A DNA stretch of 64,000 nucleotides. It comes from Hirudinaria manillensis. Its lineage: Eukaryota > Annelida > Clitellata > Hirudinida > Hirudinidae. Shown here piece by piece: positions 15,699 through 63,539 of the stretch. Every line of letters starts with the position of its first letter. The stretch's first letter is position 1. The notes under the pieces are model-generated. The model ran no database searches. It was not told where the DNA came from and saw only the letters and a list, made by a program, of their open reading frames with translations. The stretch spans positions 3,721,001 through 3,785,000 of the forward strand of contig CM067526.1 of NCBI GenBank assembly GCA_034509925.1, in the 5' to 3' direction. The position numbers and the translations under genes were made by a program.

Positions 15699-16063
15699 TG
15701 TTGATATGGCTGTTGTTACTATATTTAGTCTCGGTTACGTTAATAAGTAGGGACTGATTTTTCTTATTCCAGTAGCTATGAATAATCGTCACGTGGTCAC
15801 CCGAGAGGAGTGATTTCGACCAATCATATTTAAGGTCATCAATTAGAAACCAAACCACCAGGAAGGGATCATCCGTGATTGATGAAAGACATTTTCAATT
15901 CACAACAAATTCTTGCAAAAATCGGAAATGCTGTGTGTTCCTATTTTGGGAATTTATGACGAATGAAATTACTTTTTATTTATTTTGTTTATTAATTTTG
16001 TTTATACGTAAATTAATTGAGTGGTTGATGGAATGGATGGTTGACCAGTTAGTTGGCTGATTA

Positions 16064-16325
<262 letters not shown>

Positions 16326-16674
16326 GGAAAAAGCAATCGCAGTTGTCTTTTTGAGCAACTTTATAATCATTACCACGACCACGGGCGTTATCATCACCAC
16401 CGACATCATCATCATCATCATCATAACTGTCACGCTGGCCATCGTCTTCTTCGTCACAGCAACTGACCAATCAGTCAGTGACACGTCACGGAAAAGGGTC
16501 AGAAATTGCGCTTCTCGGCAGCAATTCATTAGGATTCCGCGAGGGAATTTATCCTCCACCCACCCACTCATCCATCCGTCCGTCCGTCCGTCCGACCGTC
16601 CATCCATCCATCCGCCCACTCCACCCCTGCTTAATCTCCTTATCACCTCACACACCTGTACGCTGGAGAATGGA

Positions 16675-16699
16675 GGATTATTCTAATTATGAATAATCC
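16675..16699. promoter_or_regulatory. Palindromic double K50-homeodomain (Otx-type) site
   Basis: Perfect 9-bp inverted repeat GGATTATTC / GAATAATCC around TAATTAT. Each arm contains the Otx/bicoid consensus TAATCC (GGATTA) and the centre holds an ATTA core. It lies about 5.6 kb 5' of Otx. Binding is inferred, not shown. Confidence 0.4.
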
Positions 16700-52746: not shown

Positions 52747-55483
<2,737 letters not shown>

Positions 55484-59758: not shown

Positions 59759-61958
59759 TCACCTGCCCAACTTAGAAACAGTCAGAAACAACTGCCTCCT
59801 GAACTTGGCTCCGGTAGCGCAGTAGAGGAAGAAGTTGATGGCGTGATTCGAGTACATGAGTAGGTCGCATACGCTCTGCCACATGAATAGTCTATCTTCG
59901 AGGTCGTCGTCGACTTCATTTTCGTACAGCAGTGTCTTGACTATCATGAATGCGTTGACGGGAAGTGTGGTCAGTAGAAAGGTAAATGATACGACCAGTA
60001 GCATGATGGCCAGTCTTATATCTCCGTCGAGCTTGGTGCGCTTCGAAACCTGCCTCGGGTTATTGCAGTGGAGATTCTTTGAGCTTCTGCAGCAGATTTT
60101 CGATTCGTTACACTTTAACTTGACGGACAAATGCCTCGTCGGCTCTTTGCGCTGCTCGGTCTCCTGGAAATCTTCTTTCGGCTTCTGAAATTTCAGACTG
60201 TTCAAGCTCATGACGATGGCCGTTTTTCTGCTCGTCTTCTTGAGAATCGAATAGTTCTTGGCACGTCGCGAGCGTTCATTTCGAAGCCCAACAGTTGCTT
60301 GAATCGAGTCATTTGTTCTGAAGGATTCGACAAATACGTTGGAACTCTTATCGTCGTCATCTCGGAACGATCTCTTGTGATCTAGGAAAAGCTTCCTGGG
60401 AGTTGTTGGCGCATGTTTTGAGTTTTCGCTGAAGCTGTTCGAACTTGCCAGTCTGTCATTTGTCAATTTGCTCCTTGTCTTTCTCGAATCAGCAACCTGA
60501 GACGAACTCCAATTTTATTTTTACGTTATTATATTTATTGATAAAATAAATTATTATTGCTCTCTACATGTGAAATAATCGTAAAGATTTAACAACAACA
60601 ACAACAACAATTTTTTTAAAGATGTTGCGATTTTATTGAATCAGAACCTTGGCAGCTATGATGAAGTTGAGCACTGATAAAATGATGAATGGCGCCCAGC
60701 AATGGAGCGTGGAATCGATCCACGGCCACACGTACTCATAGAAGAGCTTGTGTTCCTCGAAATTGTCACAGATGTACTTCATCGCCTCGTCCTCTGGGTC
60801 GTCCTGTGCACTTATCGGGAACTTTGCGAGACGCGAATCTACGAATAGGGAAGAATCATTGATGGCCGCCAACAGCAGACCGGAAGTCCGTAGCTTCCGG
60901 AGTAAATCATCTTCCGGAAAATCACTTTCCGCCATCTGTCCGTCCGCCTGACTTTCTCGTTGGAGCGCCGATGGAACGAAGAGATCGGCGGAGGAGTTTC
61001 CTTTTATTTCCTTGTCGACGAAAGGCACGAGATGATTGGTCCAAAGAAAATGGATGTTGATGAAGAGGAAAAAGATGAAGAGTAGCACGATAACGAGAAA
61101 CGTCCTCCGTTTTTTCTCTCCGTGACAACTCGCCTGGAGAGGCCTTGAAGAAATTGAACGACAATAACTTTAAGAATGATATCCTACCCTATCCTATCTC
61201 ATCCTAACCTATGCTAGCCTATCCTAGCTTATCCTTCATCACGACGAAGCCTCTTGGCAATAGTACAATCAATTTTTTTGGCCACAACCAAAAACAGCTC
61301 ATACATTTCCTGGCGACTTTATTTTTGTGCAGCAAGTTTTGAATCACGAAATTGTGAATTGGTTTTCGACGGAAAAATGCTGGACACTATTTGAATATGA
61401 AATGTTTTTAAGCGATTCATCTGAGATGTATTACGAGAAATCATTTAGATTATTTCGAAACGAGATCGTTAGAATTGCTAAAAACATTCGAAAAATGCAA
61501 ATTCAATGCAATCTATCTTGAAGGACATGATGAGACATAAATTGGCCGGAGCGCACTCTAGCGGAAGAAAAGCAATACCTGCACACGGCCATGTAGCGAT
61601 CTATCGTCATGGCCACGATCAACCACCCGGAATAGTGGGTAGTTGTGAAACCGACGAGCGACTTGAGTTTGCAGGCCCAGTTGTGCTGGAGACTGACATC
61701 GTAGCCGGTCAGGGCTTCGATCCATAGCCTCAGCAGATGGGACAACAAGACCAGATTGTCGGTCAGCGAGAGAACTGTCAGGTAGGTGTACGTTGGAAGG
61801 GAGCGCATGGCGGGTCTCGTCAGTATGGCTATGGATATCGTGTTGCCAGTCAGACCCGTCAGAAGGACAATAGGGTAGATGTACAGACGGATGGACTGCT
61901 CGACCCAAAGCTCCGTGCTGACCTTTGAACCATCTGGGGTGGTAAGCTGGGCATCCAT
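59759..61958 (-). CDS. Class A (rhodopsin-family) G protein-coupled receptor, peptide-receptor type
   Basis: Three exons in phase, 537 residues: 61958-61579, 61143-60648, 60496-59759. TM1 (about 27-47) holds GNTISIAIL. TM3 has Cys 96 and ends in DRYMAVCR (DRY at 120-122), split by intron 1. TM4 follows PLQASC. TM5 follows CDNFEEHKLFYEYVWPWIDS, whose Cys should pair with Cys 96. TM6 is RLAIMLLVVSFTFLLTTLPV. TM7 ends SNHAINFFLY, so NPxxY reads NFFLY, as in many invertebrate peptide receptors. The second extracellular loop (about 100 residues) and third intracellular loop (about 150) are unusually long. FMRFamide-receptor-like or GPR139-like orphan groups are closest in style; the ligand is unknown. 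The ATG is the first in frame after a TAG and lies inside a 34-bp inverted repeat. Confidence 0.9.
61001..61034 (-). repeat. Inverted repeat arm 1 (GPCR exon 2)
   Basis: 34 bases in coding exon 2, encoding HLVPFVDKEIK at the start of extracellular loop 2. They are the exact reverse complement of 61956-61989. Confidence 0.97.
61180..61232. repeat. Degenerate (CCTAT)n repeat
   Basis: About ten imperfect ATCCTAxC / ATCCTAT units in GPCR intron 1, next to the exon 2 acceptor. Confidence 0.7.
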
Positions 61959-61989
61959 CTCGTGCCTTTCGTCGACAAGGAAATAAAAG
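61956..61989 (+). repeat. Inverted repeat arm 2 (GPCR 5' leader and start codon)
   Basis: Perfect 34-base reverse complement of 61001-61034. On the minus strand its last three bases are the GPCR start ATG (61958-61956) and the rest lies in the 5' leader. Confidence 0.97.
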
Positions 61990-62311
61990 CAATACGGCGA
62001 AGAATGGCAAAGACTTTTCTAGAACGTGATTATCTTTCTCTGACTGTCTGTCTGTCTGTCTGTCTCTCTTCTCCTGCTCAACAAACTGCTTTGGAAAGGC
62101 TTAAAAAGATCAAGTTAGACTCAATTCAAACAATGTTTGGTTTTCGCCATTTACAAAAAAAAATAAATAACACCACGAAATATTTTATTATTCCGAAAAG
62201 GATTTCCTGAAAGCTTAGACGTCAACAAGGTTTAAATCTTACACTGTAATAGCAGCAGTTATTATTGTGTGATGATGCCGATCATTATAAGACATTAAGA
62301 AAATTCTGAGC

Positions 62312-62924
62312 GAATTTATATAGCGCCATTTGTGCTCGAGCATCAAGAGTACTTAGACCTTTTATGTAGCGCCGGATCGCAGAGGTGTTCTTTGTTATCG
62401 TTCAAATGTTCCTATAAAGTATGATTATATTGTATTATAATATTATATTTATATTAAATTATACGAAAATATTAATTAGTCTCTAGGCGCTCATTAAGGT
62501 CCTTTCCGGGTATTAAAGCTTGTCTCTTTGTCTTTGTCTTTGACAAAATCATTTTTCAGTCATGAAACTCCCCAAAGATTTCAAAGAAACGTAGTCTCAT
62601 TTGAATCCTATAAATCATTTCACATCAACATCAATCTCGAGGAATAAATAATTAAATAAAGAATTTCAAACATTAAAAATGATTATCTTTATTTCAACTT
62701 TAATTCATGCTTCAATTGGGATTCGAATTTATTTATTTTTTGAAATTTATTTTCAAAGTTTAATTCTCAGAAGGACAGTCCATTTCGTGATTCTTTGTGT
62801 GTTTTTTTTTTATCAGAATTGAAGAAATGACTATAAAGAATACTTGAGAAATTTGTATGACATCGTCTGAAGTTAAATTACTGCGCGTTTCTCCTATTAC
62901 GTACTCACGGCGCTATATAAATTC
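62312..62924. mobile_element. MITE-like element with 16-bp terminal inverted repeats
   Basis: GAATTTATATAGCGCC at 62312-62327 is matched exactly in inverse orientation by GGCGCTATATAAATTC at 62909-62924. The 580 bases between have no coding sequence. No obvious target-site duplication is seen, so element status is tentative. TATATAGCGCC-type sequences are common in dispersed animal repeats. Confidence 0.4.
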
Positions 62925-63439
62925 TTTTATCATTATCATAACTTACCACTGGAGCTCATTGTGTGTGGGGAGCAGTTCAATTTGTAAAACGAGAGAAAGA
63001 ATCTTAAAATTCTTCCAAGGAGTCACACGAGGACAGGCATTGACAAAGGTTTGTGACTTTCAATAATTTGTCTTTCACCGACCGATGCTTTCGAGGATAT
63101 GAAATGATTTCCTATAACTTTGATTAAATTTTATTATAAAAAAAATGCCCAGGAAATTGAATCGAACAAAATTATAAATAATAATTATAATTATGTTTTG
63201 TTTTTATATTGCATAAATTTTCCAACCATCCAAAAAAAGTTCATAAGTTTAAAACTCTGTTTGTCTTCTGCAGACCACAACGCGAGTCAAGAACAGAAAC
63301 TACAAATCTTTAAACAATTTTTTGCTTCAAAACCGTTGAATTTTGCGCTCTCAGGATTAAAGACGAGCTATCCAGTGAACATTATTTTCTAAAGATGAAC
63401 ATCGAAAACAACACTTGTAGTAGGAGAAGTTACATAATG

Positions 63440-63440
<1 letters not shown>

Positions 63441-63524
<84 letters not shown>
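63441..63524. repeat. (TAA)n microsatellite
   Basis: About 28 TAA triplets ending just before the LINE fragment. Confidence 0.95.
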
Positions 63525-63539
63525 CCATGACAGGAGATC

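What the first reader, a model, noticed from the sequence alone, without database searches (positions are those of the whole stretch)
61001..61989. Perfect 34-bp inverted repeat linking the GPCR start codon to its own exon 2
The leader plus start ATG (61956-61989) is an exact reverse complement of coding bases 61001-61034. Both arms would remain in the spliced mRNA, so the transcript could form a 34-bp duplex sequestering its own start codon. That duplex could block translation or attract ADAR or Dicer. Thirty-four perfect bases cannot be chance. The conserved identity means either a very recent templated insertion, selection on both arms, or an assembly artefact. It also explains an odd peptide at the start of the unusually long extracellular loop 2.
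Basis: partly seen in the sequence, partly recalled or inferred. Interest (0 to 1): 0.75.

Follow-up and report, generated by a model that had tools for sequence, protein, structure and literature searches.

The report
Inverted gene-copy scar at start codon
In a leech receptor gene, a piece of about 34 letters of coding sequence appears to have been copied backwards into the stretch just before the start codon by a DNA copying or repair error; the messenger could in theory fold back on itself there, but nothing yet shows that it does.

Summary
The inverted repeat is real: 61001-61034 and 61956-61989 are exact reverse complements (34/34; 36/37 extended), far beyond chance. With up to 3 mismatches the 34-mer is found only at these two places in the 148.4-Mb assembly, most likely the leech Hirudinaria manillensis. 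No other filtered perfect inverted repeat of 19 nt or more within 10 kb appeared in 264 kb.

The decisive fact comes from a relative: P0012, 89% identical over 131 aa, reads from another leader straight into the same start methionine, without the arm. The leader arm is thus most likely a lineage-specific insertion of about 46-48 nt: a 31-nt inverted copy of exon 2 plus 17-18 nt of unknown origin, joined at the ancestral ATG. This is the footprint of a template-switch or microhomology-primed templated insertion.

The mRNA duplex would be strong (-59.5 kcal/mol), but transcription of the leader arm and any effect on translation are untested.

The parts
61956..61989 (-). Leader arm of the inverted repeat: 31 nt of leader plus the start ATG (61956-61958); most likely the derived, inserted copy
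   Evidence: Exact reverse complement of 61001-61034; absent directly upstream of the same methionine in P0012
61001..61034 (-). Exon 2 arm, encodes HLVPFVDKEIK at the start of extracellular loop 2; probable donor
   Evidence: its leucine sits in a column that is L in 9 of 11 homologs, V in 1 and I in 1 (alignment A1). P0013 does not cover it
61990..62006 (-). 17 nt of filler inside the inferred insertion, origin unknown
   Evidence: One exact place in the own genome, itself, and one other with 1 mismatch; best local match in 60401-62500 reached by 131 of 300 shuffles
61579..61958 (-). Coding part of exon 1 of a rhodopsin-like receptor
60648..61143 (-). Exon 2 of the receptor (TM4, long extracellular loop 2, TM5)
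59759..60496 (-). Exon 3 of the receptor with its stop codon

Best explanation
The repeat is the footprint of one lineage-specific templated insertion. During replication or break repair just upstream of the receptor's start codon, a DNA end paired by a few bases (candidate: the CAT/ATG of the start codon) with a matching site in exon 2, about 0.95 kb away, copied 31 nt of exon 2 in inverted orientation, and rejoined the leader, leaving 17-18 nt of filler of unknown origin. SHOWN: the exact repeat, its uniqueness in the assembly, the intact receptor frame, and the absence of the arm upstream of the same methionine in a relative. INFERRED: exon 2 as donor, the ATG as microhomology, and the polymerase involved. 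The arms could pair in the transcript as a by-product; no function is shown.
For: Exact, unique repeat. P0012, 89% identical over 131 aa, reads SFREKSLS|MDVGLTTPKG where the window reads CFYFLVDERHE|MDAQLTTPDG in the frame fixed by the same methionine, so the arm is missing there. The window has 46 or 48 extra nt between a shared (E)KSL and the ATG, by the two possible frame assignments. A recipient in the untranslated leader needs no frame to be kept, whereas a 34-nt insertion into exon 2 would. The exon 2 arm starts at a position that is hydrophobic in 11 of 11 homologs, and most of the loop after it is shared with P0013. Inverted templated insertions of 25 bp or more with microhomology are known as human germline variants (PMC8421209, section 10 part 1).
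Against: The relative's DNA was not seen, only a predicted protein from an unnamed 6,570-bp contig; the leader homology rests on 3-4 residues. A deletion in the relative cannot be strictly excluded. P0013 starts downstream of the exon 2 arm, so the arm has not been seen in any relative. The 921-nt spacing is longer than the 100 bp that the human survey searched, and 31 nt is longer than the 1-25 nt of polymerase theta synthesis quoted in PMC7407515. The 17-nt filler has no identified source.
Confidence: 0.85

Rival explanations
1. A selected cis-regulatory hairpin: the exon 2 arm pairs with the leader in the mRNA, covers the start codon and holds down translation, or attracts ADAR or Dicer, and the arms are kept perfect by selection.
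For: Predicted pairing of the arms is near complete (mean probability 0.989 spliced, 0.982 unspliced; duplex -59.5 kcal/mol; energy rises by about 34 kcal/mol when the leader arm is shuffled, 20 shuffles).
Against: Any perfect copy would fold so. The relative lacks the leader arm, so there is no conservation; no covariation can be counted; no transcript data were at hand; the leader used for folding (135 nt) is assumed.
Confidence: 0.06
2. The direction is reversed: the leader arm is old and was copied into exon 2; the relative lost its leader arm.
For: Junctions alone do not give the direction; the exon 2 arm has not been seen in a relative.
Against: Needs a separate deletion in the relative that ends exactly at the start codon, and an in-frame net change in exon 2; the arm's leucine fits a conserved hydrophobic column.
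Confidence: 0.06
3. Assembly or library artefact.
For: No reads could be examined.
Against: Only 34 nt are repeated, 921 nt apart, with unrelated filler beside it; fold-back read chimeras make long palindromes (recalled). The contig figures match an assembly made with HiFi reads, whose single reads would be expected to span both arms.
Confidence: 0.03

Closest known systems
MMBIR-linked templated insertions (MMB-TI), PMC8421209 (passages; section 10 part 1)
   Same: Inverted copy of a nearby template, 25 bp or more, microhomology at most junctions, found as germline variants (10 of 103 and 11 of 99 calls were of the classical class in two people).
   Different: That survey searched templates within 100 bp; here the template is 921 nt away, and one junction is the start codon of a gene.
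Short-range template switch mutations, PMC7954356 (passages) and PMC8794818 (abstract and start of introduction)
   Same: One event creates a perfect inverted repeat; the second paper proposes that it can create RNA stems at a stroke.
   Different: Median copied length there is 12 nt (maximum 128); the present spacing is much larger than a short-range event.
Polymerase theta / SD-MMEJ templated insertions, PMC7407515 (passages)
   Same: Inverted or direct copies near a break, priming by 1-4 bp, mixture of templated and apparently untemplated bases.
   Different: 31 nt copied here against the 1-25 nt of synthesis quoted; template farther from the junction.
Homogenisation of short inverted repeats by template switching in yeast genes, PMC8604942 (abstract and passages)
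   Same: Makes perfect inverted repeats that touch coding sequence.
   Different: There arms of 7 bp or more with spacers up to 70 nt pre-exist; here a whole arm appears to be new.

Membership tests
Templated insertion by template switching / MMBIR | Perfect inverted copy of a nearby template | tested here: met
   34 of 34 bases, 921 nt apart, only two places in the assembly
Templated insertion by template switching / MMBIR | Net insertion relative to an unmutated sequence | tested here: met
   Arm absent upstream of the same methionine in P0012; 46 or 48 extra nt in the window. Protein-level evidence only
Templated insertion by template switching / MMBIR | Microhomology at the junctions | tested here: inconclusive
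   The ATG shared by both arms and by the relative's methionine is a candidate of 3 bases; the other junction leads into filler; the pre-insertion DNA was not seen
Polymerase theta-mediated end joining | Dependence on polymerase theta | not testable with these tools
   Needs genetics
cis-regulatory hairpin | Both arms in the mature mRNA | not testable with these tools
   No transcript reads available
cis-regulatory hairpin | Conservation or covariation of the stem | tested here: not met
   The leader arm is missing in the one relative whose leader could be read
Dispersed or mobile element | More copies in the genome | tested here: not met
   Two places only with up to 3 mismatches; flank searches give no further place

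The most novel reading that the evidence does not exclude
A single mutation gave this receptor a brand-new 34-bp switch: the mRNA of this leech lineage folds its own exon 2 over its start codon, so that translation, RNA editing or small-RNA production from the gene now depends on helicases or on splice-site and start-site choice, with the relative as a natural control that lacks the switch.
Probability: 0.08. Interest if true: 0.6.

Novelty: new member of a known kind. Interest (0 to 1): 0.3.

Why it matters
It is a clean, readable case of how one copying error can create a long perfect inverted repeat between a start codon and a coding exon without breaking the gene. If the leader arm is transcribed, the two leech lineages, with and without it, give a ready natural experiment on how strong long-range structure at a start codon is tolerated or used. 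If it is not, it is an ordinary mutational scar.

Tried and rejected
Dispersed element: rejected, only two places with up to 3 mismatches. tRNA or tmRNA: none in the window. Known RNA family: none at Rfam's gathering scores in the window. Filler templated from nearby: best local match within 60401-62500 reached by 131 of 300 shuffles; no second exact place in the genome and one with 1 mismatch, about what chance gives by my own estimate (about 0.9). A second inverted repeat just upstream (62295-62327 / 62909-62941, 79%) as a mobile element: apart from itself one partial match, 78% over about 76 bases on C6. Hidden intron in the long loop: a 225-nt in-frame stretch (60804-61028) could be cut out to give a homolog-like loop, but its GC of 0.52 is exon-like against 0.363 and 0.238 for the two introns, its donor GTGCCT looks weak by eye, and P0013 shares most of it. 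Rate of such repeats in the genome: only 264 kb were examined; no other case there still allows on the order of ten per Mb, so genome-wide rarity is not established.

Full report
OBSERVATION. The two arms are exact reverse complements over 34 of 34 bases and over 36 of 37 if extended. The expected number of such pairs in the window from base composition is about 5e-11. In the whole assembly (148,429,096 bases, 23 contigs) the 34-mer, with up to three mismatches, is found only at these two places; the control pattern gave none. Searches with 131 and 111 bases around the arms gave only the site and its partner. In 264,000 bases (the window and 20 stretches of 10 kb from contig C1) this is the only perfect inverted repeat of 19 nt or more within 10 kb that passed a simple-repeat filter, while the same script listed many direct repeats. 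The sample is small and from one contig, so rarity in the genome is not established.

ORGANISM. The genome has one hirudin-family match over Pfam's cut-off (E 5.8e-6, profile positions 17-42 of 64, one stop inside); 0 of 14 control genomes have one. Contig lengths of 14.756 Mb (C1), 11.463 Mb (C6) and 9.583 Mb (C12) fit the figures printed for the Hirudinaria manillensis assembly: longest scaffold 14.76 Mb, scaffold N50 11.46 Mb, contig N50 9.58 Mb, 22 scaffolds of 148.59 Mb in total, and a separate mitochondrial genome (passages of PMC10671345). The total here is slightly smaller (148.43 Mb). The Hirudo verbana assembly (177.8 Mb in 27 scaffolds; passages of PMC12820476) does not fit. The organism is therefore most likely H. 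manillensis; no label on the data says so. The same passages say that HiFi reads were used, which makes a small artefact of this kind unlikely.

GENE. On the minus strand a three-exon rhodopsin-like receptor of 537 aa reads through (Pfam 7tm_1 E 8.5e-26). The first protein search gave 11 homologs, with only the 7,994 best of the candidates scored; four are scallop proteins named GHSR type 1-like or GPR139, one a rotifer protein, six without an organism name. In the alignment of these 11 with ours (A1), 89 residues lie between HFLWT (end of TM4) and the conserved loop-2 cysteine in our protein, against 7 to 28 in the homologs. The exon 2 arm encodes HLVPFVDKEIK, starting two residues after that threonine; its leucine falls in a column that is L in 9 of the 11 homologs, V in one and I in one. 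The best own-genome paralog (L010) has I at the matching place by eye.

POLARITY. A search with the first 191 residues gave one hit among 188 candidates: P0012, 253 aa, from an unnamed 6,570-bp contig. It is 89% identical over 131 aa of exon 1. Its predicted frame runs on upstream of the receptor's methionine and reads SFREKSLS|MDVGLTTPKG where the window reads CFYFLVDERHE|MDAQLTTPDG. Because the frame is fixed by the shared methionine, the arm would have to appear there as FLVDERHE; it does not. Further upstream the window also has KSL, or EKSL in the next frame; by the two assignments the window has 48 or 46 extra nucleotides, namely 31 nt of arm and 17-18 nt of filler. This small leader homology (3-4 residues) is weak on its own; the absence of the arm next to the methionine does not depend on it. 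The last protein search, with the exon 2 frame, gave one hit among 58 candidates: P0013, 103 aa, 75% identical over 102 aa. It covers residues 76-177 of the 178-aa exon 2 frame, so at least 58 residues of the long loop are shared, but it begins downstream of the arm (residues 46-56). Whether the exon 2 arm exists in a relative was therefore not seen.

READING. The simplest account is one insertion in this lineage, copied in reverse from exon 2 into the leader and closing on the start codon. That the arm ends exactly at ATG is explained if the ATG (CAT on the other strand) was the microhomology; this step is inference, as is the polymerase. Inverted templated insertions of 25 bp or more are known as human germline variants (PMC8421209, passages and section 10 part 1). 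Template switching is described as leaving perfect inverted repeats (PMC7954356, passages) and as able to create RNA stems (PMC8794818, abstract and start of introduction). Homogenisation of short inverted repeats in yeast genes is in PMC8604942 (abstract and passages); polymerase theta synthesis of 1-25 nt from 1-2 bp of pairing is quoted in PMC7407515 (passages). The 0.95-kb distance here is longer than the 100 bp that the human survey searched.

FUNCTION. Folding of an assumed 135-nt leader with exons 1 and 2 gives full pairing of the arms (mean probability 0.989; 0.982 with intron 1 left in), a duplex of -59.5 kcal/mol, and a loss of about 34 kcal/mol on average when the leader arm is shuffled (20 shuffles). 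Any perfect copy would give this. There is no conservation and no transcript evidence. By eye three things leave room for a transcript without the arm: a GTAAGT donor-like site at 62941-62946 on the minus strand (position checked), acceptor-like AGs between it and the gene, and a pyrimidine-rich tract with AAAG inside the arm. None was tested.

NOVELTY. A search of the open-access library for papers holding at least four of the terms templated insertion, start codon, UTR, reverse complement and inverted duplication counted seven and listed six; none of the six describes such a case in its title or the shown start of its abstract. Two further listings on templated insertions and one on template switching were used only to find background. 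I file the finding as a new member of a known kind of mutation, with a predicted hairpin as a possible, unproved consequence.

Noticed in passing
60804-61028: Extracellular loop 2 of the receptor has 89 residues before its cysteine against 7-28 in 11 homologs; at least 58 of them are shared with a relative (P0013), so the loop expansion is older than the inverted repeat.
   Followed up: partly
62295-62327 and 62909-62941: A second, imperfect inverted repeat (33 nt, 79%) upstream of the receptor with a GGCGCTATATAAATTC-like core; not a repeated element by one genome search.
   Followed up: partly
62941-62946: A GTAAGT donor-like site on the minus strand upstream of the gene, which may mark a 5' untranslated exon.
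   Followed up: no
window, e.g. 1322-1512, 16002-16371, 53536-53797, 63441-63525: The window is dense in simple repeats (ATA, GAT and four-base units); one tetranucleotide array reads as a long NQSI-repeat frame at 16002-16682 on the minus strand.
   Followed up: no
L041 (G000:C4:12249547-12249618): Hirudin-family match over Pfam's cut-off with one stop inside the matched stretch, in a search that ignores introns; used only as a sign that the genome is a leech's.
   Followed up: no
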